DNA of 64,000 nt from Aquabacterium humicola (lineage in GTDB: Bacteria; Pseudomonadota; Gammaproteobacteria; Burkholderiales; Burkholderiaceae_C), in contig NZ_JARGNB010000001.1 of NCBI RefSeq assembly GCF_030167915.1, positions 744,001 to 808,000 of the forward strand, given 5' to 3'. Shown piece after piece: positions 18,307 to 58,321 of the stretch. How positions within the stretch are numbered: the first letter of the stretch is position 1; every line of letters begins with the position of its first letter. The notes below the pieces were generated by a model. It had not been told where the DNA came from and ran no database searches. It was given only the letters and a program-made list of their open reading frames with translations. A program made the translations under genes and the position numbers.

Positions 18307-20895
18307 TCAGTTCGCGGGCTTGGCCCACACCCGCACTTCGCTGATCGTGGCCGGCCGGTCCGGCGTGACGGCCGGAAAGCGGATGCGCAGGAAGCTGGCG
18401 GTGGCCGCCTTGTCGAAGAGCCCGATCTCGTGGCTCTTGCGTCCGCCCTTGGCCTCGGCGACCGGGCGCCACTCGGTGCCGTCCCGGCTCACCTCCACAA
18501 CGAGGTCGGGGCCGCGGTCGTCCGGCATCACCAGCGACAGCCAGTGCAGCGCGTACACGTTCTCCAGGTGAACGAGCCAGAACGCAGACCCGTCTTTCGC
18601 CGACGCGCGCCACCCGGTGTGGTCCTGGTTGTCGTTGGCCAGCGGCGCTTCGTGACCGGCCTCGGCGCCGCTGTTGGCCGTCGGCCGGCTGGTGGCGACG
18701 TTGATCGGGTCGCCCTCGAGCGCGTTGCGGTTGATGCGCGGCCAGGCGATCACCGGCTGGTCGGGCGCCAGCGGCGAGCGGCCCGGGACGAAGCGGTCCG
18801 GCCCCGTCGTATCGATCGTGATGCGCGCCGGCTTCAGGCCGGGCGACGAGGCCTCGATCACCGTGCGGCCCGCGAAGTACGACCGGAACGCGATCGCGGC
18901 CTGGCCGTCGCGGATGGCGACCATCGACGGCTTGCTGAAGACGATGCGCCGGCCGGTGGGGAACTTGCCCGGGCCGCTGACGATGCTCAGCGTCACGTCG
19001 GGCGAGTTGCTCAGCGCCCTGCCCGCGGCGTCCTGCACGGTGACGACGAGCTGCGCATCGTCTTGCCCCTGCGTGCCGCGGATCAGCGTCTGGCTCGCGG
19101 CCAGGTGCAGCTGCGCCGGCTGGCCCTCGACCGGCCATACCGGTGGCGCCACGCCGCGGTAGTGCGCGCGGTACCAGTGGTACTGCCGTTTCGGCAGGCG
19201 GAAGTAGTCGACGAAGCCCATCGAGCCGAACTCCACCGAGGCGATCGAGCCATGGTCGAAGGCGCACCACAGCGCTTCGCCCGAGCGCCACGGATAGCGC
19301 CACGAGTAAGGCCGCGGGTTCGCCTGCTGGTCGGGCGTGTCGGGCATCAGCCCGAAGCCGGGCTCGTAGTCGCCGGGCCGGTCGACCATCGTCGAGCCGT
19401 ACTCCGAGACGACCGACGGCACGCCCGGGTTCAGGAACAGCGTGGCGCCGTCGCCGTTGTAGCCGGCGATGTCGCCCAGCTTGTCGATCTCGCCGCGCTG
19501 CGCGCCGCCGATGGCCACCGGCCGCGTCGGGTCCAGCGTCTTCATGAACGCGACCTGGCGCTTCAGGAAATCGCGCATCGGCGCCATCGCTTCACCGACG
19601 GTGAAGAACGGCTCGTTGCTGGCGCTCCAGACCACGATGGACGGGTGGTTGCGGTGGATGCGGATCATCTCCGCCGCCTGCTGCAGCACGCTGGCCTCGA
19701 ATCCGGGCCGGTCCGCCGGATCGGGCGGGTAGGCGCTGGACAGCCAGGTGCCGTCGGCGCCGAAGCCGCCGATGCCCCAGAACGGCGCCTCCGACCAGAA
19801 CAGCAGGCCGAGCTCGTCGGTCGCCTTCGAGAACGCCGGCGAATGCGGGTAGTGCGAGCCGCGGATGAAGTTGAAGCCGGCGTCCTTGACCATCTGCACG
19901 TCGCGCCGCGCCGCGCCATCGGTCACGCCGTCGCCCCAGCCGGCCTGGTCCTGGTGCACGTTGGCGCCGATCATGTACAGGGGCTTGCCGTTGAGGAAGA
20001 AGCCCTTGTCGGCGGTGAACCGGATCGTGCGGATGCCGAAGGGCGTCTCGAAGCGGTCGACGGGCCGTCCGCCCACGTAGAGCCGGCTCACGAGCTTGTA
20101 GAGGATGGGCCGCTCGGGCGACCACAGCTGCGGCCTGGCCAGCTCGGACAGCGTCTGGTCGATGGCGACGGTGCCGGCGGCCGGCACAGTCTGTTCGCTG
20201 CGCGCGCCGGCCACGCGCCGGCCGTCCGCATCGAGCACGTCGGAGACCAGCGTCGCCCGGACCTCGGCGGGGCGGTGATTGCGCACTTCCGTCTGCACGC
20301 GCACGGTGGCCCGCTGATCGGACACCTGCGGCGTGGTCACGAAGGTGCCGTACCAGGCCACGTGCACGGGATCGGTCATCACCAGCCGCACGTTGCGGTA
20401 GATGCCGCCGGAGAACACATGCTCGCCGGCACGCGGCGCCACACGCGCATTCCACAGGTTATTGACGTGCACGGCCACCAGGTTGCGGCCGGGCTTCGCA
20501 TGGGGCGTGATGTCGATGCTGAAGCCGGTGTAGCCGCCGACGTGGCGGCCGGCCTGCTGGCCGTTGACGTAGACCACCGCGTCCTGGAACACGCCGTCGA
20601 ACTCGAGCGTGATGCGCCTGGCCAGGGCAGCGGCCGGCAAGTCCAGCTGCCTGCGGTACCAGCCATGGCCGACGTAGAAGCCGGTGCCCAGGAAGTACGG
20701 CTCGGAGAACGAGTGCGGCAGGTCCGCGCGCTTCCAGCCGCTGGTGTCGTGGTCCACCGCCTGCGCGCCCACTGGATTGCCGAGCGTGAAGGTCCAGTCG
20801 CGGTTGATGAGCTCGCTGCTGCGCGGGGCCGCCAGGGCGGCATTCGCGAGCAGGCCGATGCACAGGGCACTCAGGAAGCCGAGCAGTCTTGTCAC
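18307..20895 (-). CDS. Glycoside hydrolase family 2, beta-galactosidase-like
   Basis: An 862-residue GH2 enzyme with a signal peptide (ending LANAALAA), so periplasmic. The sugar-binding jelly roll is about 30-175, the Ig-like domain about 180-290 and the TIM barrel from about 295. The acid/base is Glu428 (WSASNEPFF) and the nucleophile Glu498 (VVSEYGS). The C-terminal ~130 residues (DHTGWRASA ... ISEVRVW) look like an F5/8-type discoidin/CBM32 module. The start is a GTG. It is the last gene of the GH51-to-GH2 unit, 52 bp after the acetylesterase. A galactosidase is likely, but GH2 also holds mannosidases, glucuronidases and arabinosidases. Confidence 0.92.
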   Translation of the reverse strand: MTRLLGFLSALCIGLLANAALAAPRSSELINRDWTFTLGNPVGAQAVDHDTSGWKRADLPHSFSEPYFLGTGFYVGHGWYRRQLDLPAAALARRITLEFDGVFQDAVVYVNGQQAGRHVGGYTGFSIDITPHAKPGRNLVAVHVNNLWNARVAPRAGEHVFSGGIYRNVRLVMTDPVHVAWYGTFVTTPQVSDQRATVRVQTEVRNHRPAEVRATLVSDVLDADGRRVAGARSEQTVPAAGTVAIDQTLSELARPQLWSPERPILYKLVSRLYVGGRPVDRFETPFGIRTIRFTADKGFFLNGKPLYMIGANVHQDQAGWGDGVTDGAARRDVQMVKDAGFNFIRGSHYPHSPAFSKATDELGLLFWSEAPFWGIGGFGADGTWLSSAYPPDPADRPGFEASVLQQAAEMIRIHRNHPSIVVWSASNEPFFTVGEAMAPMRDFLKRQVAFMKTLDPTRPVAIGGAQRGEIDKLGDIAGYNGDGATLFLNPGVPSVVSEYGSTMVDRPGDYEPGFGLMPDTPDQQANPRPYSWRYPWRSGEALWCAFDHGSIASVEFGSMGFVDYFRLPKRQYHWYRAHYRGVAPPVWPVEGQPAQLHLAASQTLIRGTQGQDDAQLVVTVQDAAGRALSNSPDVTLSIVSGPGKFPTGRRIVFSKPSMVAIRDGQAAIAFRSYFAGRTVIEASSPGLKPARITIDTTGPDRFVPGRSPLAPDQPVIAWPRINRNALEGDPINVATSRPTANSGAEAGHEAPLANDNQDHTGWRASAKDGSAFWLVHLENVYALHWLSLVMPDDRGPDLVVEVSRDGTEWRPVAEAKGGRKSHEIGLFDKAATASFLRIRFPAVTPDRPATISEVRVWAKPAN

Positions 20896-20932
20896 GGGAT
20901 CTTTGGTGGTTCAAGGTGTCGAGGCGCCTGCG

Positions 20933-20949
20933 GAAGCCTTCACGGCTTC
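20933..20949 (-). terminator. Small hairpin at the acetylesterase stop codon
   Basis: GAAGCC-TTCAC-GGCTTC forms a perfect 6-bp stem overlapping the esterase stop and preceding the GH2 start. It may tune expression of the final gene. Confidence 0.3.
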
Positions 20950-22981
20950 AGCGCGCGTAACGCCGCCCGGCCGATTCCAGCGGCCAGTCGTCGGTGCGCA
21001 GTGGGGGCAGCGGCAGGCCGTCACCGCCGACGACATTGGCCTCGCTCGGGTTGTTCACCCAGGCGTAGCGCGCCGCCACCGGCGCGGGCACGGCGGGGCT
21101 GCTGAGCACGATGCGGTCGCCGTCGAGGCGGGCTTGCGCCGGCTGCCAGCGCCGGTCGGCGCCGGCCAGGTAGAAGCCGCTCACAGGTTCGCCCGCGCGC
21201 GCGGTGCGCAGGCCGCCGGCGGTGTCGCCGAAGCGCAGCCGCAGCGCGCTGCCGCTCACTTCGTGGCCCAGCAGGCGCGGGCCGCCGGCCGGCGCGGCGC
21301 GCAGGCCGAGCTCGTGCAGCGCCAGCGCGGCCAGCCGGTGGCCCACGGTGCGCTTGTCGCGCGGGTGGATGTCGACCTCGTCGCCGACGTCGATGGCGGT
21401 GGCCATGCCGGTGTGCGGCAGCGCCAGCGCCGCGGCCTGCGACTCGCGCAATTCGGGCCAGCCGCCGGCACCGGGCACGTTGTCGGCCAGCCGCAGAAAG
21501 GCGGCGAGCTGCACGAAGAAGAACGGCAGCTTCGCATCGCCGAACTGGCCGCGCCAGTCCTGGATCAGGCGCTTGAAGCCATCGGCGTAGGCGGCCGCGC
21601 GGCCGGCATTGGCCTCGCCCTGATACCACAGCACGCCACGCACGGATAGGCCCCCATGCTCCCGCTGGTCGCTGCCCCCCGAGGGGGCGTCCGCCGCTTG
21701 GGGCGGCCCGGCGCGGCGTGGCCCGTGCAGCGGCGCGATCAGGCCGTTGTGGGCCAGCGCCGGCGCGTCGTTGGCACTCGGCTGCGCAGGAGCCGCGATC
21801 TGCTCGACGCGCGCGCGCCAGGCGCCGGTCAGCGGGACGGCGCCGGCCGCGGTGTCCAGGCGCATCGACGCCGCATCGCCATGGAAGCCGCCGCCGCCGC
21901 CCGTGTCGGTAACCCGCACGGCGATCCAGTTGGCACCCGCGCGCAACAGGCCGGCGGGCAGCGCATAGCGGCGCGGCTGCTCCCAGCCGCACTGGCCGCC
22001 GACCCGCTGGCCGTTGACCCAGGTCTCGTCGCAGTCGTCCACCTTCGCCAGGTGCAGCTCGGCCGCTCCGGCCGCCTGCGCGGGCGTCAGTTCCACCCGC
22101 TTGCGCATCCAGACCACGCCGTCGAGGTTGGGCAGGCCCTGGCCTTCCCACTCGTGCAGCGCCTGCAGCGTCGGCCAGCTGGTGTCGATGTCGGCGGCGG
22201 CCGACCAGCCGCCCGGATCGATGCCCTCCAGCGGCAGGCCCGGTTGCCATGCGCCCACGCGGCCGCGCAGGTGCTCGCGCAGCGCCGCACCGAACGCGGC
22301 GTTGTCGGCCGGCAGCGCACGCACCGCGGGTGCCAGGTCGGGGTCCTGCAGCGCGGCGTCGCGGCGCACCCAGGTCTCCAGCATCGAGCCGCCCCAGGCG
22401 GTGTTGATCAGGCCGATCGGCACGCCCTGCACTGCCTGCATCTGGCGCGCGAAGTGGTAGCCGATGGCACTGAACTGGCCCACCTTGCCGGGCTCGGCCA
22501 CGACCCAGGGCGCAGGCGCGATCTCCGCCTCGGGCCGCACGCTGGCGCGGTGCGGCACGCGCAGGTGCCGCAGCTGCGGGTTCTGCGGCGTGGTGTTCTC
22601 CAGCGCACCGGTGTCGGTCTCGGCGAGCACCCACTCCATGTTGGACTGCCCGCCGAGCAGCCAGACGTCGCCGATCAGCACATCGCGCAGCTCGACGGTC
22701 TGGTCGCCAATGACACGCAAGCGGTGCGGCCCGCCGGCCGGCAGCGGTGCGAGCTGAACGCGCCAGCGGCCATCGGCGCCGACGCGGACGCGGGCCTGGC
22801 GGCCGCCCAGCGCCACCGTCAGCGTCTGGCCGGGCGTGGCCGTGCCCCACAGGCGCAGCGGGCGGTCGCGCTGCAGCACCATGTGCTCGCCGAACACGGG
22901 GGACAGGCGCACTTCGGCTGGCGCCTTGGCGGGCAACACGGCCAGCAGGGCCAGCAACAGGGGCAGGGCGGACTTCTTCAT
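20948..22981 (-). CDS. Sialate O-acetylesterase-family carbohydrate acetylesterase
   Basis: A 677-residue secreted SGNH-type esterase of the sialate-O-acetylesterase family. The signal peptide is MKKSALPLLLALLAVLPAKA. The nucleophile is Ser113 in LLGGQSNMEW, and RGVLWYQGEANA is the family hallmark. A jelly-roll domain (about 285-400) interrupts the SGNH fold, as is usual. In plant-polysaccharide loci these enzymes deacetylate hemicellulose, including xyloglucan galactose. An ATG at 23041 overlaps the GH31 stop (ATGA), but I prefer 22981, where the signal peptide begins. Oddly, residues about 420-444 are encoded by a palindromic repeat inserted between conserved blocks. Confidence 0.9.
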   Translation of the reverse strand: MKKSALPLLLALLAVLPAKAPAEVRLSPVFGEHMVLQRDRPLRLWGTATPGQTLTVALGGRQARVRVGADGRWRVQLAPLPAGGPHRLRVIGDQTVELRDVLIGDVWLLGGQSNMEWVLAETDTGALENTTPQNPQLRHLRVPHRASVRPEAEIAPAPWVVAEPGKVGQFSAIGYHFARQMQAVQGVPIGLINTAWGGSMLETWVRRDAALQDPDLAPAVRALPADNAAFGAALREHLRGRVGAWQPGLPLEGIDPGGWSAAADIDTSWPTLQALHEWEGQGLPNLDGVVWMRKRVELTPAQAAGAAELHLAKVDDCDETWVNGQRVGGQCGWEQPRRYALPAGLLRAGANWIAVRVTDTGGGGGFHGDAASMRLDTAAGAVPLTGAWRARVEQIAAPAQPSANDAPALAHNGLIAPLHGPRRAGPPQAADAPSGGSDQREHGGLSVRGVLWYQGEANAGRAAAYADGFKRLIQDWRGQFGDAKLPFFFVQLAAFLRLADNVPGAGGWPELRESQAAALALPHTGMATAIDVGDEVDIHPRDKRTVGHRLAALALHELGLRAAPAGGPRLLGHEVSGSALRLRFGDTAGGLRTARAGEPVSGFYLAGADRRWQPAQARLDGDRIVLSSPAVPAPVAARYAWVNNPSEANVVGGDGLPLPPLRTDDWPLESAGRRYAR
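21662..21706. repeat. REP-like double-palindrome element inside the acetylesterase gene
   Basis: CCGCTGG is followed by GCCCCC-CGA-GGGGGC (21674-21688) and CCGCC-GCTTGG-GGCGG (21691-21706), the same layout as the intergenic element at 9731-9774. It is read in frame as a Pro/Gly/Ala-rich insert between NGLIAPLHG and VRGVLWYQGE, segments that are normally nearly adjacent in this family. Confidence 0.65.
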
Positions 22982-23037
22982 CGGGGTCGGGTTTCTCGCT
23001 TCTTCGTGGCCGGGCGTGTTGCCGCGAGGCGCTTGCT

Positions 23038-26016
23038 TCATCGCTCGTCCGGGCCGAAGCGCAGCGTCAGCGCGCGGCCCTCAACCCGCACGGTCCGGGC
23101 CTGTTCGGCCTGCCCGGGCGCGGCCATCAACCGCACGCGCAGCGCGCGCCGGGCCACCATGCCGCGGTAGCGCCCCTGGCGCGCACCGATGTGCAGCGTC
23201 TGGCGCGCGTCGTCCCAGCGCAGCGCGGTGGTGGCGCGCTCGCCGCGTTCGTAGGCATAGGTTTCGCCGTCGTCTTCATAGATTGTGAAGTCAGCGTCCG
23301 CACCGGGGTAGACGCGGATCTCCCAGGGCGCGTCGGGATGCTGGCCGGTGTGCTCAACCACCGGGCCGAGCGGCACGATCGCGCCGGCGCGCACGAACAG
23401 CGGGAACTCGTCCAGCGCGTAGTCGCGCTCAGTGCTGCGGCCGCCGGCGTGGCATTCGCCGGTCCAGAAGTCGAACCAGTCGCAGCCGGCGGGCAGCAGC
23501 GTGGCCTGGCGGCGGTCGAGCCGGCGCTGCGCATCCGCCAGCTCGCGCAGCAGGCTCGGGGTGCGCCAGGCCAGGCGCATCACGCGGCCGCCGCCGTCCT
23601 GGAAGAAGTCCACCCGCAGCTCCAGCGTCTGGCCCTCGCGCAGCGTCAGGCGGTGGCCGCCGAAGCGGGCGCCGCCGACGGCCCACTCGTCGACGACGAG
23701 CCGGCCGTCCAGCCACACCCGAAAGCCGTCATCACCCTCGACGCCGATCTCGTGCTCGCCGCTCTCGGCGGCGGTGATCGTGCCGGTCCAGCGCGCCGAG
23801 AAGCGATTCAGGCTGGCGAGGCCGGGCGGCAGGCTGCCCAGCGGCGGGTCGGACCAGTGGTGGGCGATCACCGTGTCGACGGTGCGGCTGGCGGGCTTCT
23901 CGAAGTTCATGCCCTCGAAATACGCCAGCGCGAGGCCGCGCTGGCCGTCGGGCGTGCGCAGCTGCGTCGCCGGCACCGTGGGCGGCGGCGGGTGCACCGG
24001 GTGGAACATCGGCCGCGTGATCGGCTGCACCAGGAACGCCGGGCCGAACATGTAAGTGTCGTCCACCCGGCGCAACGGCAGCTGGTCGGGAAAGTCCATC
24101 GCCAGCCCGCGCATCATCGTGTAGCCCTGCTGCGTGCTGCGCCAGGCCAGGCTGTAGAGGTAGGGCAGCAGCCGGTAGCGCAGCTGCGCGGCGCGCAGCA
24201 GCGAGCCGTACAGCGCCGGGTCCAGCGTCTTGAACAGATAGGGTTCGCGGTCGATCGAGGTACCGTGGATGCGGTAGACCGGGTTGAAGATGCCGAACTG
24301 GTTCCAGCGGGCGTAGAGCTCGCGGTACGCCGGGTTGCGCTGCCCATCCGGGAAGTTGACGAAGAAGCCGCCGGTGTCCTGCGTCCAGTACGGCAGGCCG
24401 GCCATCGACACGTTCAGGCCGCCGGCGATCTGCGCGCGCAGCGTGGCCCAGGACGCCGTGGTATCGCCGGACCACGGCATCGCGGCATAACGCTGCTGGC
24501 CGGCCCAGGCCGAGCGGGTGAGCGTGAACACGCGCCGGCCGCCGAGGTCCGCGGCGGCCCGCTGGCCTTCGTAGACGCCGCGCGTCGTCACCAGGCTGTA
24601 GACGTTGAGGTAGCGGGTGGAATCGCCGAGCGCGGTGCGGCCCAGCCGCTTGATGTCGGCCTCGACCTCGCGCGGGTCGTGCGCGGCGCCGCCCACTTCC
24701 ACCTCGGTGCCGTCCATCCACAGCGCATCGACGCCGACGTCGAGCAGGCCCTGCTTGAGGTGCTTGAAGTAGATGCGGCGGCCCTCGGCGCTGAAAGCGT
24801 CGTAGATGCGCGCGCGCCTGGAGATCCAGTGCAGCGGCTCGAAGCGCAGCCCGTGCGCATCGAGCTCGCGCGCCAACGCGGTGTCGTTGCCCACCGAGGG
24901 CCAGATCGAGGCCATCAGCTTGACCTTGAGCGGGCCGTGCAGTTCGCGCGTCATCGCGGCGGGGTCGGGAAAGCGCTCGGCGTCCCAGACCATGCCGCTC
25001 CACCGGCCGTCCCATTCGCGGCCGTTCGGGCCGTCCTTCTCGCCGCCCCAGTACTGCCAGTCCTGCACGATGTAGTCCAGCGGGAAGCGGTCGGCGCGGA
25101 AGCGCCGCACCACGTCCAGCAGCTGCTGCTGGGTCTGGTAGCGCTCCTTGCTCATGAACAGGCCGAAGGCCGCCTTCGGGAACATCGGCGCCGCGCCGCT
25201 GAGCTGGCGACAACCCGCGATCACCGCGTCCATGTCACTTCCGGCCACCAGGTAGTAGTCGGCGCCGGCCGGCGCGCTCTCGACCTCGAAGCGCATGCCG
25301 TCGGGCCGGTCGCTGAAGCGCATCTTCGAGTACACGTCCCACAGCAGGCCCCAGCGGCGGGTGGAGACCAGGAACGGCACCACGATGCCGATGTTGGTCT
25401 GCACCATCAGCACGTCGCGGCCGCGGTAGTCCATGTGCGGCTCGTCGTACTGGCCCAGGCCGTACAGCGATTCGTCGGGCGTCAGCGTGAAGGTCTGCGT
25501 CAGCGCGTAGCTCGGGCCGCCGGCGATCTCGACGCGCTGCAGCTCGGTCGGCGCCTGGGCGCGCTCGCGGGTCAGCAGGCGGCCGCCGGCGCCGAAGAAG
25601 GCCAGCGCGCCGCTGCGCTTGTCCACCGTCACGCGCACGCCGGGTCCGGCGATGTCCAGCGTGTCGGCGCTGTCGCTCACCTCGAAGGCGACGGGCTTCG
25701 GCCGCGCCACCACCACCAGGCTGGGCTGGGTGGTGTGGGCCACGCCCAGGTGGGCGGCCACGCGCACCAGGCCGGCGCCGTAGAACAGCACGCTCTTGGT
25801 CAGGTCGCCGGTGCGGAACTGCACCCCCTCGGCCACGCGCCGCCAGGCGAAACCGTCCGGCGCGGCGTCCATGCGCAGGGCCTGCAGCTGCCCGGCGCCA
25901 TCCAGCGCGGAGGGCAGCGCCGTGGCCGCGCCGGCCGGCAAGCCGAGCGCGCCGGCCGAGGCCCCTGCCAGCGCGCCAAGGAAGTCGCGGCGCTTCAATT
26001 CGATCGGGTTCATCAT
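23038..26016 (-). CDS. GH31 alpha-xylosidase with PA14-like module
   Basis: A 992-residue GH31 enzyme exported by a twin-arginine signal (ELKRRDFLGALAGASAG). The nucleophile is Asp435 (ALWMDGTE) and the acid/base Asp518 (WSGDTTASW). A PA14-like module (FSARWTGTITAAESGEHE ... DGFRVWLDGR) lies near residues 730-815, after the barrel. PA14-bearing GH31s include the xyloglucan alpha-xylosidases of Cellvibrio type, which remove non-reducing xylose from xyloglucan oligosaccharides. The ATG shares one base with the GH27 stop (TGATG), so translation is coupled. Alpha-glucosidase is the alternative, but the neighbours favour alpha-xylosidase. Confidence 0.92.
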   Translation of the reverse strand: MMNPIELKRRDFLGALAGASAGALGLPAGAATALPSALDGAGQLQALRMDAAPDGFAWRRVAEGVQFRTGDLTKSVLFYGAGLVRVAAHLGVAHTTQPSLVVVARPKPVAFEVSDSADTLDIAGPGVRVTVDKRSGALAFFGAGGRLLTRERAQAPTELQRVEIAGGPSYALTQTFTLTPDESLYGLGQYDEPHMDYRGRDVLMVQTNIGIVVPFLVSTRRWGLLWDVYSKMRFSDRPDGMRFEVESAPAGADYYLVAGSDMDAVIAGCRQLSGAAPMFPKAAFGLFMSKERYQTQQQLLDVVRRFRADRFPLDYIVQDWQYWGGEKDGPNGREWDGRWSGMVWDAERFPDPAAMTRELHGPLKVKLMASIWPSVGNDTALARELDAHGLRFEPLHWISRRARIYDAFSAEGRRIYFKHLKQGLLDVGVDALWMDGTEVEVGGAAHDPREVEADIKRLGRTALGDSTRYLNVYSLVTTRGVYEGQRAAADLGGRRVFTLTRSAWAGQQRYAAMPWSGDTTASWATLRAQIAGGLNVSMAGLPYWTQDTGGFFVNFPDGQRNPAYRELYARWNQFGIFNPVYRIHGTSIDREPYLFKTLDPALYGSLLRAAQLRYRLLPYLYSLAWRSTQQGYTMMRGLAMDFPDQLPLRRVDDTYMFGPAFLVQPITRPMFHPVHPPPPTVPATQLRTPDGQRGLALAYFEGMNFEKPASRTVDTVIAHHWSDPPLGSLPPGLASLNRFSARWTGTITAAESGEHEIGVEGDDGFRVWLDGRLVVDEWAVGGARFGGHRLTLREGQTLELRVDFFQDGGGRVMRLAWRTPSLLRELADAQRRLDRRQATLLPAGCDWFDFWTGECHAGGRSTERDYALDEFPLFVRAGAIVPLGPVVEHTGQHPDAPWEIRVYPGADADFTIYEDDGETYAYERGERATTALRWDDARQTLHIGARQGRYRGMVARRALRVRLMAAPGQAEQARTVRVEGRALTLRFGPDER

Positions 26017-27446: not shown

Positions 27447-27475
27447 CGGCGATTCGGCGCAAGGCCTGTCCCGGA

Positions 27476-29422: not shown

Positions 29423-29433
29423 GCAGGTCCTGC

Positions 29434-34193: not shown

Positions 34194-34204
34194 GGTGTTC
34201 CCGC

Positions 34205-45756: not shown

Positions 45757-45766
45757 CTTGGCGGTC

Positions 45767-49410: not shown

Positions 49411-51057
49411 TCAGTAGCGTCCCATCGTCACCTTCAGGACCACCGGGTTCCCGGTGAAGTTCAGGCCCCAGTCGACCTGGTCGCCGTTCCAGCGCCGCTC
49501 CATCTGCCAGCGGCCGCGCTCGTCGAAGCGGCCCTGCTCGGCGCTGACGAGCTGCGCCCGGCCGCTGCCCTCGGCATCGTCGAGCCGCACGCGCGCGAAC
49601 TGGCCGACGAGCACGAACTCGTCGTCGGCGATCTGCGCGATGGCGACGCCGCCGTTGAGCTGCTTCGCATGCGGCGGCAGCTCCTTCGCGTTGCCAGGCC
49701 ACTCGCGCTCGCCGAACATCCACTGGTCGAACGTCACGTGGGCCTTCCAGCCCTTCATCGCGATGGTCTGGTCGGCCAGGTCGTCGCCCTTGGCGGCGCC
49801 GTGGGTTCGGCCCTCGAAGGCCCAGCGCGCCCACAGGCGCTGCATCGGCGCGAAGGCGGCGTAGATGCGCGCGAAGGGCTCGACCATCGCCTTGTCGCTG
49901 TTCTTCGCGCCGAGCGGGAAGTTGGCGTAGTCGAAGTAGTCGATGCCAAAGGGCGCGACGCCGATCGCGCCGCGGCCGAGGATCTGGTAGACATAACGCG
50001 CGTAAGGCGCGGCATTGCCGAGCTCGGGCACGAACAGCGCGTTGTCCGGCCGCTGGAACCGGTCCAGGTGCGCGCCGACCTTGGCCGACTCGACGTGGTA
50101 GATGTCGGGGCCGACGACGTCGATGCTGGGCGCAGCGGCCTTGTAGATGTCGATCACGTCGTAGGTCGGCCCGCCGCTGGCGAAGTTCGATTTCCACGGT
50201 GCGATCGGCTCCAGCGGATCGCGCAGCGCGTTGTTGACGTACATCGGCAGGTCGTACACCGCCCGGCCCGCGCGGGCGATCTGCTCGATGTAGCTGGCGA
50301 TCGCCCAGGCATGGAAGTACTCGTCGGCATAGTCGCCATAGACCGCCTTCCAGTTGCCCGAGGCCGCTGCCGGCACCGGCGGCTTCTTGCGCGCCAGCAC
50401 GGCCGCCGGCACGTCGCGCTCGAAGGCGGCCTGGGCCTTCGGGCCGAAGTCGCGCGCGAGCCCGAAGGTGCCGACCTCGTTCTGCACCTGCACCATGATC
50501 ACGGTGCGCTGCTGCTCGTCGATCTTCTTCAGGTGCGTCATCAGCGCGACGAAGGCCTTTCTGTCGGCTTCCAGCGTCTGCTCGCCGAAGGGCGACAGGC
50601 AGTAGCTGTTCCTGCCCTGCGGATCGAGCATGCGCGGGAAGCGCCGGTTGTCCAGCTTCACCCAGGCCGGGGTGTACTGCGGGCTCGTGTTCTTCCAGGT
50701 GCCGAACCACAGCAGCACCACGCGCACCTTGTTCTGCCGCGCCTGGCGCACCAGGGCATCGACGAAGCTGAAGTCGAAGCGGCCCTCGACCGGCTCGACC
50801 TGCTCCCACGCGATCGGCACCTCGACGGTGTTGGCGTGGATGTCCTTCACCGCGGGCCACACCTTCTCCAGCGCCTGCGGGTAGTTGCTGGAGTTGTGGA
50901 CCTGCGCGCCCAGCATCAGGAAGGGCGCGCCGTCGACGAAGAGCGCATGGCGGCCGTTGCGCTCGACGAGGCGGGGCGCCTCTGCCGCCCACGACGCGGC
51001 GGCGAAGACGAGCGAACAGGCGGCGGCGCTCCAGCGAGGAATCTTGAACATCGGCAT
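49411..51057 (-). CDS. GH35 beta-galactosidase
   Basis: A 548-residue GH35 enzyme with a signal peptide ([20 protein letters not shown]). The barrel begins [20 protein letters not shown]; the acid/base is Glu194 ([11 protein letters not shown]) and the nucleophile Glu345 (LFVPELGN). The C-terminal ~150 residues match the DUF5597-type beta domain of short bacterial GH35s. An enzyme of this type (Bgl35A) removes galactose from xyloglucan side chains in Cellvibrio. It follows the TonB receptor across a 110-bp gap with a hairpin. ATGs at 51057 and 51051 are both possible. Confidence 0.92.
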
Positions 51058-51078
51058 GGCATCGGAAGGTCGGATCCG

Positions 51079-51110
51079 GCCCGCGCCACGGGGGTACGTG
51101 CGGCGCGGGC
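51079..51110 (-). terminator. Hairpin between TonB receptor and GH35
   Basis: GCCCGCGCC (51079-51087) and GGCGCGGGC (51102-51110) form a perfect 9-bp stem with a 14-nt loop just downstream of the receptor gene. There is no T-run. It may partly terminate or stabilise the receptor mRNA and so set its level above that of the downstream enzymes. Confidence 0.45.
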
Positions 51111-51167
51111 GGGAACGGGCGGCGGCGGTGGTGGCGGCGGGCAAGGCCGCCCCACGCGCGGCACGCG

Positions 51168-54100
51168 TCAGAACGTGTAGCGTGCGGTCAGCGTGTAGCG
51201 CGGCCCCGAGTAGAACAGCCCGCGGGTCTTGTCGCCGATGTGCTGCTGCATCACCTGGCGCTGCTTGGCGTCGTTGAGGTTCTGCGCTTCCAGGCCCAGC
51301 GTCAGCTTCTCCTCCAGCAGCTTGTAGAAGATGCCGGCGTCGAGCTGGCCGTAGTCGTCGGCCCAGGTCGGCAGGGCCCAGGCGATGCCGCGCTGGCCGA
51401 CATCGGGGCTGTCGGGATTGTTGTTGGTGCCGTCGGTGCCGTTGGTGCCGTTGACGTTCACGCCCTGCAGGTACTTCGAGCGCCAGGTGTAGGCCAGGCG
51501 CGCCGACAGCGGCCCCTGGTCGTACATGAAGGTCAGCGTGTAGGCCTTGCGCGACAGGCCCTGCAGCGGCAGGTCGCCGAAGGTGCGGCCGTCGGTGTCG
51601 CAGCCGTTGAGGTTCAGGTTCAGGTTCGCCGCACCGGTGCTGTTGCCCGAGCACCAGGCCTGCAGCACCGGCTTGTACAGCTTGGTCTTGCTGTCCACGT
51701 AGGTGAAGTTGGCCTGCATGCCGAGGCCGGACAGCCAGCCCGGCAGCTTGTCGAAGTAGGTCTGGAACGCCAGCTCGAATCCGCGTGCATGGCCCTTGCC
51801 GCCGTTGATCGGGCTGGTGACGACGAAGTCCTGCGGGCGGCCGTTGACGTCCGGCAGCGAGAACAGCGCCGTCTGGTTGATGATGACGTCCTTCAGGTCC
51901 TTGTTGAAGGCGGCGAAGGTCAGCGATCCGGTGCGGCTGAAGTACCACTCGGCCGTGGCATCGACCTGCGTCGAGCGGATCGGCTTGAGCAAGGGGTTGC
52001 CCTTGGCCTCGCCGGTGTGCGAGACCGAGGTCACCTCGGTGCCCGAGCGCTTCACGTCCTGGGTGAGCGTGGTGTAGGCCTGCAGCTGGCTGAAGTCCGG
52101 CCGCGAGATGGCCTTGGCTGCGGCGAAGCGGAACTGCAGCTCCTCGCTCGCCTTCATGCGCAGGTTCAGGCTCGGCAGCGTGTCGGTGTAGCTGTTCTTG
52201 AAGTCCTGCGGCTGCACGAAGCGCGGGATCACCGGCACGGACACGCCGGTATCGGTCGGGTTCGGGTTCGAGCCCGAGAAGGTGGTGTAGCCGCGCGCCG
52301 AGGCCTTGGTGTGCACGATGCGCAGGCCGAGGTTGCCGTCCACCGGGAACTTCCAGTCGTCGAAACCGAAGCGCAGCTGCGCGTAGGCGGCCTGCGTGCG
52401 CTCCTGCTGCACGTTGGTGCCGGCGCTGTCGACGTCGTCCTTGATGGACTCGGGCGTGAACGTGAACGGCCAGCCGTTGCACACGCTCTTGTCGGCCACG
52501 CTCGGCTCGTTCAGGCAGTGCTGGCGGCCGTACTCGTGCAATTGGGCGTAGCTGCCGGGGAAGCCTTGCGCCAGCGCGACGTCGGGAAACACCACCGCCG
52601 GCGGCGCCGGCACCTTGCCGTTGAAGAAGTTCGGGAAGGTGTGCAGGTGCGTGCCGCCCGGGAAGGCGCTGAGGTAGGCCGGACCGCCGGCGGTCCACGG
52701 CTGGGTGATCGCCTGCCAGTGGTAGCCGCTGGGGTTCTGGCTGGTCTTGGCCTCGCGCTCGGTCAGCCGCAGGCCGACGCGCAGGTCATGCAGCACGGGG
52801 TCGTCGAACTTCAGCAGCGCGTCGCCCTTCCAGGCCTTCTCCTCCGCCTTGCTGCGGTCCATGTGCTCCATCGTGAAACCCCAGTAGTAGTTGGCGGGGT
52901 TCGCGAGGTAGGCGCGGTCGCTGGCGTCGAAGCTGAGGCTCGGGATCGTGCCGGTCAGGTCCAGGCTCTGCTTGGGCATGCCCACGCCGGTGGCCACGGT
53001 GGAATCGAAGCTCGAGGTGTTGGCGCGGATGTACTGCAGGTCCGAGCTCAAGCTCAGCCGCTCGCTGGCCTTCCACTTCAGCCGCCAGGCGAGCTCCTCG
53101 GTCTTGGAGTTGCGCCAGGACGTGCGCGTATCGTCGTTGAAGTTGATCAGCGAGCCGTCGCTGTTCGTGATCACGCCGGACAGCAGGGCGCCCTGCCCGT
53201 CGAACTGGCCGCCGGTGACGCGGATGCGGTACGGATCGGACTGCGCGAAGATCGCCCGCTCGTCCCACTGCATGCGGTACTTCGACTGGAAGTAGGTCAG
53301 CGACGTGTCGATGTCGTTGGTCTTCCATTGCAGCGCGCCATAGAGGCCTTCGCGCTTGCGGTCGAATTCCAGCGTGCGCCACTGCGCACCCTTCGGCACC
53401 CACAGCGTGGTGGCCGGATCCTGGCCCGCCACGGCGTCGTTGCGCGGGTAGTAGGGCTCGACCTGGAAGAAGTCCGAGCGCGTCGCGCTCTCGGAGCTGG
53501 CCACGTGCAGCAGCGCGCCGAAGCGGCCTGCCGCGGTGTCCCAGCGGTTGCTGAAGAGGGCCGAATACGACGGCGAGTGCTGCTTGTTGAGCCGGGTGTA
53601 GGTGTCCTGCAGCGACAGCGAGGCCTTCATGCCGGGGTAGTCCAGCGGCAGCGCGGTGCGCAGGTTGACGAGGCCGCCGATCGCGCCCTCGATCTGCTCG
53701 GCGGACGGGTTCTTGTAGACGTCGACACCCGCCATCAGCTCCGGCGGCACGTCCTCGAAGTTCAGCGCACGGCCGCCATTGGCGGAGAACGAGTCGCGGC
53801 CGTTCAGCTCGGAGCGCACCCAGGGCAGGCCGCGGATCGAGACGCCCGACCCCTCGACGGAGAAGTGCTCCGGGTCGTTCTTCGCCATCGTGCGGTCGAT
53901 CGTGACGCCGACCACGCGCTGCAGCACTTCGGTCACCGAGCGGTCCGGCAGCTTGCCGATGTCGTCGGCGACGATCGAGTCGACGACCTCGTCGGCGTCC
54001 TTCTTGATCTTCTGCGCCGACTGCAGCGCCGCGCGCTGGCCGGTGACGACGACGGTGTCCGGCTTCTTCTCGTCGTCCTTGCGCGCCGCCATCTGGGCCA

Positions 54101-54173
54101 GGGCCCCGCCTGCGCAGATCAGGGCCACCTGGGCCACGGCCAGCGACAGCGCGGTCCGCTTGAATTGGTTCAT
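51168..54173 (-). CDS. TonB-dependent outer-membrane receptor (carbohydrate type)
   Basis: A 1,001-residue receptor with signal peptide [19 protein letters not shown], a TonB-box-like segment ([15 protein letters not shown]), a plug domain (about 55-175: [36 protein letters not shown]) and a 22-strand barrel ending [10 protein letters not shown]. Length and start are those of the Caulobacter/Xanthomonas-type receptors for plant oligosaccharides. Two ATGs lie 6 bp apart. AGGAG is only 2 nt from the first (54179) but 8 nt from the second (54173), so I choose the second. It is the first gene of the unit running to GH43 and should import xyloglucan oligosaccharides. Confidence 0.95.
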
Positions 54174-54300: not shown

Positions 54301-55620
54301 TCATCCCTCGCACAACCTGTTGAACAGGTTTTCCAGCAGTTCCTGGCGACCGGAGACGGGCGCCGGGTCGGCGTTCGCCTGCAGTGCCCGGTCGGCCAGC
54401 TGTTCAAGCGTCACCCGACCATCGAGAATGGCTTGGGCTTCCGTCGAGGCCCAACCCGCATAACGAGCGTCCAGGGCCTGCGCGAGGCGGCCGTCCTGGA
54501 TCAGTTTCTCGGCCACCAGCAGCGCACGCGCGCAGAGGTCGATCGCACCGACGTGGCCGTGGAACAGGTCCTCGGCATCGAGCGACTGCCGGCGCACCTT
54601 GGCGTCGAAGTTCAAGCCGCCGGAGCCCAGTCCACCGGCCTGCAGGATGTGGTAGAGCGCCAGCGCCGTCTCGGGCAGGTTGTTGGGGAACTGGTCGGTG
54701 TCCCAGCCGAGCTGCGCATCGCCGCGGTTCATGTCGATGCTGCCGAGGATGCCCAGCGCCGAGGCCATCGCGATCTCGTGCTCGAAGCTGTGGCCCGACA
54801 GCGTCGCGTGGTTGGCCTCGATGTTGACCTTGATCTCCTTCTCGAGGCCGTGGCGCACGAGCAGGCCGTAGACCGTGGCGACGTCGAAGTCGTACTGGTG
54901 CTTCGACGGCTCGCGCGGCTTGGGCTCGATCAGGATCGCGCCGTCGAAGCCGATCTTGTGCTTGTGCTCGACCACCATGCTCAGGAAGCGGCCCATCTGG
55001 TCCAGCTCCTGCCCGATGCGCGTGTTCAGCAGGGTCTCGTAGCCCTCGCGGCCTCCCCACAGCACGTAGTTCTGGCCACCCAGGCGATGGGTCGCCTCCA
55101 GCGCGTCGCGCACCTGGATCGCCGCCTGCGCGAATACCGCAGGGTCCGGGTTCGTCGCCGCGCCGGCCATGAACCGGCGGTGGCTGAACAGGTTCGCCGT
55201 GCCCCACAGCAGCTTCACGCCGCTGCGCTGCTGGTGCGCGGCCAGCAGGTCGACCATGCGCAGGAAGTTCTCGCGGCTCTCGCGCGGCGTGGCGCCTTCG
55301 GGCGCGACGTCGCGGTCGTGGAAGGTGTAGTACGGCACGCCGAGCTTGCTGAAGAGCTCGAAGGCCGCCTCGGCCTTCACCGCTGCCAGTTCCATCGGCG
55401 AGCCGCCCTGGAACCATGGACGCTCGAAGGTCTGGCCGCCGAAGGGGTCGAGGCCGGTCCAGCAGAAGGAATGCCAGTAGCACACCGCGAAGCGCAGGTG
55501 CTCCTCCATGCGCTTGCCGAGGACGATGCGGTCCTTGTCGTAATGGCGGTAGGACAGCGGATCGTCGCTGTCGCGGCCGCGGAATCGCACCGGGGCGATG
55601 GCTTGGAAATAGCTCGTCAT
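54301..55620 (-). CDS. xylA: Xylose isomerase
   Basis: A 439-residue class II xylose isomerase converting D-xylose to D-xylulose in the cytosol. The catalytic histidine lies in YTFHDRD (His101, with Asp104) and the metal ligands in [30 protein letters not shown] and [14 protein letters not shown]. Length is normal. The ATG overlaps the xylB stop by 4 bp. It is the last gene of xylR-xylB-xylA and handles the xylose released by GH31. A 127-bp gap separates it from the receptor gene. Confidence 0.98.
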
Positions 55621-57089
55621 GTGATGGGATTGATTTGCCGGTAAATGCGGCGGAACGATTGAAGCCTTTCCTGAAGCGCGACATGGCGAACCGGATCGGG
55701 ACGATGGCTGGCCGCGACGTCAGGCCGCGTGCAGGATTCGAGGCCGCCGCTGCCGCAGGCGATGCGCGCCAGCCGAGCGGCCCCCAGCGCCGCGCCGGCT
55801 TCCGCGCCGGCATGGACGATGATGTCGACGCCGAGCGCGTCGGCGATCAACTGCGCCCACAGCGGGCTGCGGGCGCCGCCGCCGACGAGCGACAGCCGCT
55901 CGACCCGCGTGCCGGTGCTGCGCAGCGCGTCGAGGCCGTCGGCCAGGCCGAAGGCGACGCCTTCGAGCACGGCATAACCGCAGGCAGCGCGGCCGGTGTC
56001 ATGACGCAGGCCGTGCAGCGTGCCGGTGGCGAACGGGTTGTTGTGCGGCGTGCGCTCGCCGGCCAGGTAGGGCAGGAACAGCGGCGCCGCGTCGCGCTCG
56101 GCCGGCGTCAGCGCCGCCACCTCGTGCAGCAGCTGCGCCTCGTCGGCCGCACCGGCGAGCAGCGTGAACCAGCGCAGGCAGCTGGCCGCCGACAGCATCA
56201 CGCTCATCTGGTGCCACAGGCCCGGCACCGCGTGGCAGAAGGCGTGCACCGCGGACGCTGCATTCGGGCGGAAGCGGTCGTCGACCACGAACAGCACGCC
56301 CGAGGTGCCGAGCGAGATGAAACCGTCGCCCGGCGCCACCGCGCCGACGCCGACGGCGCTGGCGGCGTTGTCGCCGGCACCGCCGGCGACGATCACTTCG
56401 GGCGCCAGGCCCCAGGCGCGCGCGAGCTCGGGCCGCAGCGTGCCCGACGGCTCGGTGCCCTCGACCAGGCGCGGCATCTGCGCGCGCTGCAGGCCGCAGG
56501 CGGCGAGCAGCGCGTCGGACCAGTCGCGGCGGGCGACGTCCAGCCACAGCGTTCCGGCGGCATCGGAGGGCTCGCTGACCTTCTCGCCGGTCAGCCGCAG
56601 GCGCAGGTAGTCCTTGGGCAGCAGCACGCTGCGCGTCGCGGCGAAGACGGCGGGCTCGTGGCGCCGCACCCACAGCAGCTTCGGCGCGGTAAAGCCGGGC
56701 ATAGCCAGGTTGCCGGCCACCCGGTGCAGCGACGGCGCGGCGCGGGTCAGCTCCGCGCACTCGGCATGGCTGCGGCCGTCGTTCCACAGGATCGCGGGAC
56801 GCAGCACCTCGTCGTCGGCCCCCAGCAGCACGGCGCCATGCATCTGGCCCGACAGGCCGATGCCACGCACGCGGGCGAAGGCGGCTGCATGCGCGGCACG
56901 CAACGCGGCGACGGCCGCCTCGGTGGCCTGCCACCAGGCCGCGGGGTCCTGCTCCGACCACAGCGGCTGCGGCCGCGACAGCGCCAGCGGCGCGCCGGCG
57001 CTGCCGACGATGCCGCCCTGCTCGTCCATCAGCAGCAGCTTGACCTCGGACGTGCCGAGGTCGATGCCGAGGAACGTGTCGGCCGTCAC
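55617..57089 (-). CDS. xylB: Xylulokinase
   Basis: A 490-residue FGGY-family kinase phosphorylating D-xylulose. The first phosphate loop is [17 protein letters not shown] near residues 6-22; [24 protein letters not shown] and the C-terminal [20 protein letters not shown] are the xylulokinase blocks. The start is a GTG overlapping the xylR stop (GTGA), with a strong AGGAGG 4 nt upstream. The C-terminus carries about 50 residues of less conserved tail. It works between the isomerase and the pentose phosphate pathway. Confidence 0.96.
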
Positions 57090-58321
57090 GCCGCCTCCTG
57101 CTTCGCGGCCTCGCGCGCGGCCGCGTAGGCCGGCGCGATCAGCGGCCGCGTGAGCCGGTAGCGCGCCAGCGCCGCGGCGCCGACGGCCACGGCGTCGACG
57201 CCGAAGCGCGAGGTGCGCACCGGCGGCGGCGACAGGCTGGCGGCTTCGGCATAGTCGTTCAGCGTGCGCAGCGCCGGCTGCAGGAAGGCCTCGCCCAGCT
57301 CGATCGCCGCGCCCCCGAGCACGATGCATCCGGGGTCGTAGGCCGAGGCCAGGTTCTGCAGCAGCACGCCGAGGTAGCTGCCGGCCTTCTTCACCGCGCG
57401 CCCGGTTTCGGCATCGCCGGCGGCCAGACGCCGCTGCACCTCGGCCAGCAGGTCGTCGTCGGTGGCGTTGGGCAGCATCGCCCTCGCGCCGATCAAGGCC
57501 TCGGCGCAGCCGCGGCGGCCGCACGAGCACTCGGGCCCGCCGACCTGCAGCACGATGTGGCCGACCTCGCCGGCGAAGCCGCGGCGGCCCACCAGCAGCC
57601 GGTCGCCGACGATCACGCCGGCGCCGACGCCCTGGCTGACGCTGACGAACAGCAGCGGATCGACCGCCTCGCCCGGGTTGAACTCCATCTCGCCGATGGC
57701 CGCGACGTCGGCCTCGTTCTGCAGGAACAGCGGCACGCCGGCGAGCGCGGAGCCGGCGAGCTTCTCGCCCAGCAACTCGCCCACCGGCACGTCGCGCCAC
57801 TGCAGGTTGGGCGCGAAGTGCAGGAAGCCGGTCGCCTCGTCGACACCGCCGGGCAGGCCCACGCCGATGCCGATGACGCGCTGGGTCTGCGCATCGAGCT
57901 GCTTGCAGGCCCGGAGCATGGCCCCCGCCAGCACGGCGATGCACGACTTGGCGCCGCGCGCCGACCCGTATCCCGAGCGCGCCTGCGCCAGCACCTCGCC
58001 CGTCAGCGCGGTGACGACGACACGCACGCCCTCGATGCCGACTTCCGCACCGACCAGCACGAGCCGCGAGGGGTCGACATACAGCGGTGTCGGCCGGCGG
58101 CCGAGCTCGCCGGTGGCCACCACCTCGCGCTCAATCAGCCAGCCTTCGTCGATCAGCTCGCGCACCAGCATGCTGACCGTCGACTTGGTCAGCTGCACCT
58201 CGACCGCCAGGTCGGCCCGCGAGCGACCGGGGTTCGCGCACAGGTGGCGCACCAGCGCCATCCGGTTGATGCCCTTGAGCAACTGCTGGTGGCCCGCGGC
58301 TTCCGAAAGATCAACGAGCAA
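57086..58321 (-). CDS. xylR: ROK-family xylose repressor
   Basis: A 411-residue ROK regulator. Residues about 15-75 are a winged helix (NRMALVRHLCANPGRSRADLAVEVQLTKSTVSMLVRELI). A sugar-kinase-like ROK domain follows, with the zinc motif CSCGRRGCAEAL and the GVGLPGGVD block. The start is a TTG with AGGAG 8 nt upstream; no ATG or GTG gives a full N-terminus. It leads the xylRBA operon, and a XylR-like operator overlaps its own promoter, implying xylose-relieved autorepression. Function is inferred from family and operon. Confidence 0.93.
   Translation of the reverse strand: MLVDLSEAAGHQQLLKGINRMALVRHLCANPGRSRADLAVEVQLTKSTVSMLVRELIDEGWLIEREVVATGELGRRPTPLYVDPSRLVLVGAEVGIEGVRVVVTALTGEVLAQARSGYGSARGAKSCIAVLAGAMLRACKQLDAQTQRVIGIGVGLPGGVDEATGFLHFAPNLQWRDVPVGELLGEKLAGSALAGVPLFLQNEADVAAIGEMEFNPGEAVDPLLFVSVSQGVGAGVIVGDRLLVGRRGFAGEVGHIVLQVGGPECSCGRRGCAEALIGARAMLPNATDDDLLAEVQRRLAAGDAETGRAVKKAGSYLGVLLQNLASAYDPGCIVLGGAAIELGEAFLQPALRTLNDYAEAASLSPPPVRTSRFGVDAVAVGAAALARYRLTRPLIAPAYAAAREAAKQEAA

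What the first reader, a model, noticed from the sequence alone, without database searches (positions are those of the whole stretch)
18307..58321. Greatly expanded xyloglucan utilisation locus in a probable Burkholderiales
The sequence shows TonB receptor, GH74, GH31 with PA14-like module, GH35 and GH95 together, the set known from the Cellvibrio xyloglucan locus, plus GH5, GH29, GH51, GH43, GH2, GH1, two GH27s, GH97, GH127, two esterases, a GPH symporter and xylRBA. Fifteen or more carbohydrate-active enzymes in about 40 kb on one strand is unusual for this group and implies complete breakdown of decorated xyloglucan. Assignment of the substrate is established for the core families and inferred for the rest.
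Basis: partly seen in the sequence, partly recalled or inferred. Interest (0 to 1): 0.75.

Follow-up and report, generated by a model that had tools for sequence, protein, structure and literature searches.

The report
Composite xyloglucan-degrading locus with arabinose enzymes
A bacterium carries a 40-kilobase run of 22 genes that looks built to take apart the plant-wall sugar polymer xyloglucan; it is of a known kind, but it merges two gene blocks that lie apart in a sister species and adds enzymes for sugar caps not known on xyloglucan.

Summary
Window 18307-58321 has 22 genes on the minus strand: 14 glycoside hydrolases, 2 esterases, one TonB receptor, a GPH symporter, xylA, xylB, a ROK regulator and a LacI-type ORF. 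The xyloglucan reading is well supported by homology; activity and induction are untested. Corrections: the closest characterised relative is the Xanthomonas locus (GH74, GH31, GH35, GH95, CE20, xylA, xylB, MFS), not Cellvibrio, whose GH31/35/95 set has no linked endo-xyloglucanase. "GH127" is nearer GH146, one GH27 is of the beta-L-arabinopyranosidase type, one esterase is CE20-like. New here: in sister genome G020 the same genes (except GH74) form two separate loci; the window is one merged array. G020 keeps a scar of a deleted GH74, and the window's LacI has lost its DNA-binding domain by a 159-bp in-frame deletion. A ROK/XylR-like operator marks this and neighbouring loci: 6 of 7 genome matches lie in 105 kb. 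Relatives of the odd GH27/GH97 genes also sit by GH74 in a second genus. Their targets are not known xyloglucan decorations: co-digestion of arabinogalactan, or an unrecognised cap.

The parts
57086..58321 (-). ROK-family regulator with winged HTH, probable XylR
   Evidence: Pfam ROK 1.5e-46 and HTH_24; ortholog 91% in G020
58366..58384 (.). operator-like palindrome TAGTTTG-N5-CGAACTA upstream of ROK, shared with G020
   Evidence: 14/14 to the motif; one of 7 sites in the genome at up to 2 mismatches; it helped to define the motif
55617..57089 (-). XylB xylulokinase
   Evidence: TIGR01312 above cut-off
54301..55620 (-). XylA xylose isomerase
   Evidence: TIGR02630 above cut-off
51168..54173 (-). 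TonB-dependent receptor, probable oligosaccharide importer
   Evidence: TIGR01782 above cut-off; 63% to G020 against 78-96% for the other 20 genes compared
49411..51165 (-). GH35 beta-galactosidase with DUF5597 (start probably near 51057)
   Evidence: 3u7v 8.6e-181, Bgl35A 2.3e-160; DUF5597
48064..49407 (-). GDSL esterase with galactose-binding-like domain
   Evidence: Pfam Lipase_GDSL_2 3.8e-36, Exop_C 1.1e-26
46706..48067 (-). GH1 beta-glucosidase; no signal peptide seen by eye
   Evidence: TIGR03356 above cut-off
45767..46702 (-). LacI-type effector domain without HTH: 159-bp in-frame deletion relative to the 361-aa G020 ortholog
   Evidence: Pfam LacI HTH in the G020 ortholog at residues 14-62 (2.3e-12), none in the window ORF; dN/dS 0.24
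44335..45717 (-). GPH/MFS_2 sugar symporter (Pfam scan used 44335-45774)
   Evidence: Pfam MFS_2 2e-64; TIGR00792 173 bits, below its cut-off of 231
41759..44338 (-). GH74 endo-xyloglucanase with cadherin-like domain and a lipobox-like N-terminus (LAGC, by eye)
   Evidence: 18 distinct PDB sequences, best 6p2m 1e-157
39270..41744 (-). GH95 alpha-L-fucosidase
   Evidence: Pfam 8.6e-161
37633..39273 (-). GH43
   Evidence: Pfam 2.7e-82; best 6ms3 8e-46; BoGH43A 4.1e-43 ranks fifth
37568..37586 (.). operator-like site upstream of GH51, same place in G020
   Evidence: 12/14, 2 mismatches; it helped to define the motif
35920..37461 (-). GH51 alpha-L-arabinofuranosidase
   Evidence: Pfam Alpha-L-AF_C 1.3e-42
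34205..35845 (-). GH5 endo-xyloglucanase, nearest 3zmr, with about 200 N-terminal residues outside the catalytic domain
   Evidence: 6.6e-64; Pfam Cellulase 3.4e-56
32631..34202 (-). GH29 alpha-L-fucosidase
   Evidence: Pfam 5.2e-81
31314..32555 (-). GH27b, alpha-galactosidase type (Asp at the specificity position)
   Evidence: 6f4c 3e-119; IDDCW motif
29434..31314 (-). GH127/GH146-type beta-L-arabinofuranosidase, nearest the 5opj group
27476..29422 (-). GH97, nearest alpha-galactosidases 3a24 and 5e1q
26016..27449 (-). GH27a, Group VI beta-L-arabinopyranosidase type (Ile at the specificity position)
   Evidence: 4nx0 6.8e-121 and alignment; paper rule
23038..26013 (-). GH31 alpha-xylosidase with PA14
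   Evidence: 7kmp 2.5e-142, 5jou, 2xvg; PA14
20948..22981 (-). CE20-like acetylesterase: GQSNM, DIH and an inserted GH2_N-like domain
18307..20895 (-). GH2 with F5/8 type C domain
20943..32492 (-). block B (CE20-GH31-GH27a-GH97-GH146-GH27b): inside the array here, a separate locus in G020 C5:39178-50672

Best explanation
This is a proteobacterial xyloglucan utilisation locus that works like the Xanthomonas one, enlarged and merged with a second block. Inferred route: surface GH74 and GH5 cut the polymer; the TonB receptor imports the oligosaccharides; exported exo-enzymes (Tat- or Sec-like N-termini, by eye) deacetylate (CE20-like) and remove fucose (GH95, GH29), galactose (GH35, GH2), arabinofuranose (GH51, GH43) and xylose (GH31). 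The GPH symporter, GH1, XylA and XylB finish the job. GH27a, GH27b, GH97 and the GH146-type enzyme would remove alpha-D-Gal, beta-L-Arap and beta-L-Araf caps, so that GH51/GH43 can reach the arabinofuranose beneath. A ROK/XylR-like regulator acting on TAGTTYG-N5-CRAACTA probably controls this and the neighbouring xyloglucan loci. Shown: gene content, orthology, collinearity, the GH74 scar, the LacI deletion, the operator-like sites. Inferred: all activities, transport, regulation and substrate.
For: Family and nearest-structure matches. Same core set and co-induction by xyloglucan oligosaccharides in X. citri. The 21 genes other than GH74 have G020 counterparts at 63-96% identity, dN/dS 0.13-0.61. 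Operator-like sites: 6 of 7 G000 matches lie in C1:781568-886311; 5 of 9 G020 matches lie on C5, at the same promoters and at the block B promoter; 1 of 2 in G012 lies upstream of its ROK gene; 1 of 9 in G049 lies just upstream of the possible starts of a GH74 gene. In genus g30, GH27a directly follows a GH74 in 3 of the 3 contigs where the upstream side is held; G117 C33 joins GH74, GH5, GH29, GH31, GH97, GH27a, a GH42, CE20 and GH27b in one cluster.
Against: No activity, expression or growth data. No xyloglucan side chain that I know or found needs GH27a, GH27b or GH97. Operator counts show no excess over the reversed control pattern: 7 against 6 in G000 and fewer or equal in the 8 other genomes (9/19, 2/12, 3/10, 4/4, 0/11, 1/15, 9/21, 5/12), so the case rests on position, and three sites shaped the motif. 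Xanthomonas has two TonB receptors at its locus, this array one. Six more distant Group VI GH27 paralogs (45-48%) have no GH74 in the stretches held, so this enzyme type is not tied to xyloglucan in general. Of 17 named GH74 loci from elsewhere, 2 have a GH27a- or GH97-like neighbour at E<=1e-15 in the flank held, 15 do not.
Confidence: 0.72

Rival explanations
1. Two-substrate array: locus A digests xyloglucan, while block B mainly serves arabinogalactan protein or pectic arabinogalactan whose arabinofuranoses carry alpha-D-Gal or beta-L-Arap caps; the merger brings them under one control.
For: These caps are described on AGPs; characterised Group VI GH27 enzymes act on arabinogalactan; in G020 block B is a separate locus.
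Against: No type II galactan backbone enzyme was recognised among the Pfam matches of the array, though GH43 subfamilies were not resolved; block B holds GH31 and CE20-like genes, both part of the Xanthomonas xyloglucan set; block B relatives sit beside GH74 in g30 genomes; the block B promoter of G020 carries an operator-like site like that of locus A.
Confidence: 0.35
2. General plant-wall scavenging island: a chance pile-up of CAZyme genes around shared regulators at a hot spot, with no single substrate.
For: A second XyGUL-like cluster (GH9, TonB, GH74, GH31, two GH2) and a third (GH51, GH29, GH3, GH5, TonB) lie within about 90 kb of the array in G000; the place next to ROK2 holds different operons in G000 and G020.
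Against: The neighbouring clusters carry GH74 or GH5 endo-enzymes and operator-like sites as well; the order of locus A is kept in G020.
Confidence: 0.2
3. On history: block B is ancestral inside locus A and was moved out in the G020 lineage, rather than being a recent arrival in the window.
For: G117 has block B genes with GH5, GH29 and GH74 in one cluster; G020 is derived for GH74, since it keeps a scar.
Against: ROK2 and LacI2, which flank block B in G020, stand without it in G000 C1:875594-877961; G012 has a locus A variant without block B in the 85 kb held.
Confidence: 0.4

Closest known systems
Xanthomonas citri XyGUL, XAC1768-XAC1777 (PMC8245568, passages read)
   Same: GH74, GH31, GH35, GH95, CE20-type esterase, xylA, xylB and MFS transporter together with TonB receptor
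   Different: One TonB receptor instead of two; adds GH5, GH29, GH51, GH43, GH2, GH1, two GH27, GH97, GH146-type, a GDSL esterase and ROK/LacI genes
Cellvibrio japonicus XyGUL (PMC4285296, passages read)
   Same: GH31, GH35 and GH95 (that it has a TonB receptor is recalled)
   Different: PMC8245568 states that no endo-xyloglucanase or esterase gene is linked there; PMC4285296 itself calls the locus less complete than that of B. ovatus
Bacteroides ovatus XyGUL (PMC4967831 seen in search listing only; described in passages of PMC4285296 and PMC8245568)
   Same: GH5 nearest 3zmr (recalled as BoGH5A), GH31 near BoGH31A, GH43 matching BoGH43A fifth best
   Different: No SusD-type protein among the Pfam matches of this array; adds GH74, GH35, GH95 and the rest (its own gene list partly recalled)
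GH27 Group VI beta-L-arabinopyranosidases GsAbp and CpArap27 (PMC4598101, passages read)
   Same: Ile at the specificity position; closest solved structure
   Different: Those are described on arabinogalactan; this one lies in a xyloglucan array

Membership tests
Xanthomonas-type XyGUL | GH74, GH31, GH35 and GH95 clustered | tested here: met
Xanthomonas-type XyGUL | CE20 esterase with inserted ancillary domain | tested here: met
   SASA match in pieces with GH2_N-like domain between, GQSNM and DIH; no direct comparison with XacXaeA was run
Xanthomonas-type XyGUL | two TonB-dependent transporters in the locus | tested here: not met
   one in the array; others lie outside at C1:831702-834818 and 886395-889157. 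Filed as working like it, not as a strict member
Xanthomonas-type XyGUL | adjacent xylA, xylB and MFS transporter | tested here: met
Xyloglucan utilisation locus (by function) | induction by xyloglucan and activity of endo-enzyme and alpha-xylosidase on it | not testable with these tools
   homology only
Bacteroidota PUL | SusC/SusD pair (defining feature recalled) | tested here: not met
   no SusD-type Pfam match among the proteins scanned
GH27 Group VI beta-L-arabinopyranosidase | Ile at the GsAbp Ile67 position and closest homology to GsAbp | tested here: met
   VDIQW aligned to GsAbp; rule from PMC4598101
GH27 Group VI beta-L-arabinopyranosidase | activity on beta-L-Arap and not alpha-D-Gal | not testable with these tools
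   -
GH146 | closest to BT0349-type and not GH127 enzymes | tested here: inconclusive
   5opj/6yqh 3.4e-130, 8k7y/8k7x about 1e-60, the other six distinct sequences 6.9e-21 to 2.7e-15; that 5opj/6yqh is BT0349 is recalled
LacI family regulator (window ORF) | N-terminal HTH | tested here: not met
   Pfam LacI HTH in the G020 ortholog, none in the window ORF; 159-bp in-frame deletion

The most novel reading that the evidence does not exclude
Some plant xyloglucans, or glycans covalently bound to them, carry arabinofuranosyl side chains capped with beta-L-arabinopyranose or alpha-D-galactose. I know of no such structure on xyloglucan. Bacteria of several lineages keep the matching uncapping enzymes in the same array as, or next to, their GH74 xyloglucanases: the window genus, genus g30, an Acidobacterium (L019: GH27 with Glu at the specificity position beside GH74) and, with GH97 instead, a Caulobacter (L021: GH97-GH74-GH29). 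Against it: 15 of the 17 named GH74 loci show no such neighbour in the flank held.
Probability: 0.15. Interest if true: 0.8.

Novelty: new variant of a known kind. Interest (0 to 1): 0.5.

Why it matters
The pair G000/G020, at about 90% protein identity for most of these genes, shows how a polysaccharide locus is rebuilt: a six-gene block in two positions, an endo-enzyme gene lost down to its two ends, a receptor replaced or fast-evolving, and a repressor-type protein cut down to its sugar-binding part. The GH27/GH97-GH74 linkage makes a chemical prediction that can be tested: arabinose or galactose caps on xyloglucan or on material attached to it.

Tried and rejected
Rejected: Cellvibrio as closest model. 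D and E side chains of moss and fern xyloglucan as the target of GH27a: the passages read do not state the anomer; from memory it is alpha-L-Arap, which a beta-galactosidase would fit better. GH74 gained in the window: G020 keeps both ends of the gene, so loss in G020 is the better reading. First operator guess GATAG-N5-CTATC: one exact and one 1-mismatch site in G020, none in the G000 and G012 stretches, dropped for TAGTTYG-N5-CRAACTA. Dead LacI remnant: the frame is open and dN/dS is like that of its neighbours, but two species cannot date the deletion against the substitutions, so a dying gene is not excluded.

Papers on Burkholderiales with GH74 and xyloglucan: one search lists 4, none on this by title and abstract start; only this library was searched (one search shows 12 of 264). 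The named scan with GH74 gave 17 loci, none with a Burkholderiales name in its title; one, the Proteobacteria MAG L014, has GH43, GH5, CE20 and GH35 relatives by its GH74.

Weak points: gene starts were chosen by eye. The GH5 query was cut at its C-terminus. The family and order samples are 90 genomes each, drawn from larger groups. Of the 14 GH27a rows, three (G117 C1, G124 C60, G124 C189) were not looked at in context; the G124 C148 copy carries one in-frame TGA there. L109 holds a short 65% piece without the motif and was not counted among the paralogs; it lies by a LacI-type and a GH5 relative. Rows below 300 or 150 bases, and rows overlapping better ones, were dropped from the collinearity tables. 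An earlier count said about 13 codons for the GH74 scar; the alignment shows nine.


Full report
The observation. I called genes by codon-position composition and scanned the ORFs of 18307-58321 with Pfam, NCBIfam for ten of them, and solved structures for nine. All 22 genes lie on the minus strand. In transcription order: ROK, XylB, XylA, TonB receptor, GH35, GDSL esterase, GH1, LacI-type, GPH symporter, GH74, GH95, GH43, GH51, GH5, GH29, GH27b, GH146-type, GH97, GH27a, GH31, CE20-like, GH2. With starts chosen by eye, gaps run from -4 to 75 bp except 127 bp before the TonB receptor gene and 171 bp before GH51; GH35 probably starts later than the stretch I used, leaving about 110 bp before it. 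A divergent tryptophan halogenase gene follows at 58554.

What the enzymes resemble. GH74 matches 18 distinct PDB sequences, 12 of them with xyloglucan in the molecule name; the best is 6p2m at 1e-157; its N-terminus has a lipobox-like LAGC. GH5 is nearest 3zmr. GH31 is nearest alpha-xylosidases 7kmp, 5jou and 2xvg. GH35 is nearest 3u7v and Bgl35A. GH43 matches beta-xylosidases slightly better than BoGH43A, so its role is open. The SASA esterase has the inserted domain, GQSNM and DxH described for CE20. GH27a aligns without large gaps over most of its length to the beta-L-arabinopyranosidase GsAbp and has Ile at the position of GsAbp Ile67, which the cited paper ties to arabinopyranosidase specificity; GH27b has Asp there, as in alpha-galactosidases. 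GH97 is nearest alpha-galactosidases. The GH127-type protein is far nearer 5opj than the structures named GH127.

Comparison with a sister species. Genome G020 of the same genus holds counterparts of the 21 genes other than GH74. G000 C1:760-878 kb and G020 C5:118.9-52 kb are collinear in inverted sense, apart from stretches found only in G000, the longest at 804-812.6 and 851.6-875.6 kb. One block breaks this order: CE20-GH31-GH27a-GH97-GH146-GH27b lies in the window between GH29 and GH2 (20943-32492), but in G020 at C5:39178-50672 beside LacI, ROK2 and LacI2 genes. ROK2 and LacI2 remain in G000 at C1:875594-877961 without the block. In the window the block has no promoter region of its own like that upstream of GH27b in G020. 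I cannot say which arrangement is older: G012 has a locus A variant without the block in the 85 kb held, while G117 of another genus has block B genes together with GH5, GH29 and GH74.

Two deletions. Between the symporter and GH95 genes, G020 keeps about the first nine codons of GH74 and its last nine codons with the stop, so GH74 was once there. In the window the LacI-type gene lacks 159 bp in frame; the G020 ortholog reads 361 aa, with the Pfam LacI HTH at residues 14-62, which the window ORF does not match. The remaining effector domain is 91% identical, dN/dS 0.24, within the range of its neighbours (0.13-0.36, TonB receptor apart). An intact LacI paralog lies at C1:875597-876664. The TonB receptor is the outlier: 63% identity, dN/dS 0.61 and dS 0.52 against 0.16-0.39, so replacement or rapid change.

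Regulation. A palindrome TAGTTTG-N5-CGAACTA lies upstream of the ROK gene in both species. Scanning with it gave six G000 sites at 12 of 14 or better in 261 kb, against 0.5 rows at 12 and none higher from four first-order Markov sequences; each palindromic site gives two rows. Genome-wide at up to two mismatches G000 has 7 sites, 6 of them in 105 kb: upstream of ROK, of GH51, two upstream of the possible starts of the GH74 gene of the second xyloglucan cluster, one upstream of an aldose 1-epimerase gene and one upstream of a GH5 gene. G020 has 9 sites, 5 on C5, one of them at the block B promoter; G012 has 2, one upstream of its ROK; G049 has 9, one just upstream of the possible starts of a GH74 gene; G117 has 5, none in the 60 kb of its cluster that I scanned. 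G002, G004, G009 and G013, where no such locus was found, have 3, 4, 0 and 1, each with two mismatches. The reversed control pattern gives as many or more matches in 8 of these 9 genomes, so numbers alone show nothing; the argument is position, the places of the control matches were not shown, and the sites upstream of ROK, GH51 and the G020 GH27b shaped the motif. Its likeness to Bacillus XylR operators is from memory.

Spread. At E<=1e-50 GH74 is found in 2 of 21 genus genomes and 3 of 90 sampled from the family, self included; the G020 match is the ortholog of the second G000 GH74, not of the window's. GH31 at E<=1e-100: 2 of 90, self included (G020 was not in that sample). The TonB receptor: 4 of 21, self included. 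GH27a at E<=1e-60: 1 of 90 in the order, the window itself, and 8 of 20 in genus g30. Close GH27a orthologs (82-90%) were seen in five other genomes (G020, G049, G116, G117, G124), all with further block B genes around; in g30, GH74 stands directly before GH27a in 3 of 3 contigs where that side is held (G049, G117, G124; the G116 contig starts there). Six paralogs at 45-48%, with the same Ile, have no GH74, GH5, GH31 or GH95 relative at E<=1e-12 in the stretches held, 20 kb in five cases and 6 kb in one. So it is this ortholog group, not the type, that goes with xyloglucan. Among 17 named GH74 loci from other groups, L019 has a GH27a-like and L021 a GH97-like neighbour; the other 15, several of them short, have neither at E<=1e-15.

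Meaning. The core is a xyloglucan system as in Xanthomonas (passages of PMC8245568). Caps of alpha-D-Gal and beta-L-Arap on O-3 of arabinofuranose are described for gum arabic AGP (passages of PMC8939339) and beta-L-Arap on wheat AGP (passages of PMC5897480), and the table there lists only alpha-L-Araf for xyloglucan; a beta-L-Araf cap on tomato-type xyloglucan (the T side chain) is from memory. A single idea joins block B: its four odd enzymes uncap arabinofuranose so that GH51 and GH43 can act. Whether the arabinofuranose is on xyloglucan or on arabinogalactan cannot be told from sequence.

Noticed in passing
window 45767-46702: LacI-type ORF that has lost its DNA-binding domain by a 159-bp in-frame deletion while the sugar-binding part stays conserved.
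   Followed up: partly
L051 about 15700-15830 (G020 C5:105700-105830): Scar of a deleted GH74 gene: about its first nine and its last nine codons remain between symporter and GH95 genes.
   Followed up: yes
window 51168-54173: TonB receptor is 63% identical to its positional counterpart in G020 while the other 20 genes compared are 78-96%.
   Followed up: partly
L029 1953-18991 (G000 C1:828-845 kb): Second xyloglucan-type cluster outside the window: GH9, tryptophan halogenase, TonB receptor, GH74, GH31, two GH2, with two operator-like sites.
   Followed up: partly
L070 6568-20000 and L081 96-4157 (G000 C1:871-889 kb): IlvD/EDD dehydratase, SMP-30 lactonase and aldose 1-epimerase genes, suggesting an oxidative sugar route, then GH51, GH29, GH3, GH5 and TonB receptor; two operator-like sites.
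   Followed up: partly
L053 and L054 (G049), L098-L099 (G117): Stretches like the N-terminal domain of the window's GH5 lie directly before several GH74 matches; arrays of GH74, GH5 and repeated GH29 in genus g30.
   Followed up: no
L014 1193-13353 (Proteobacteria MAG): GH74 with GH43, GH5, CE20 and GH35 relatives (35-45%) in one 12-kb stretch.
   Followed up: no
L101 6232-11337 (G116 C13): Two GH27b-like genes that match only in separate overlapping pieces, possibly frameshifted.
   Followed up: no
window 5676-13334: DUF1329 and DUF1302 proteins, SDR, aldehyde dehydrogenase and a divergent sigma-54 activator with XylR_N and V4R domains.
   Followed up: no
window 58554-60107: Tryptophan-halogenase-like gene divergent from the ROK gene; relatives also lie by TonB receptors in the second cluster and in G020, G015 and G117.
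   Followed up: no
window 16193-17200: ORF with a C-terminal PEP-CTERM motif.
   Followed up: no
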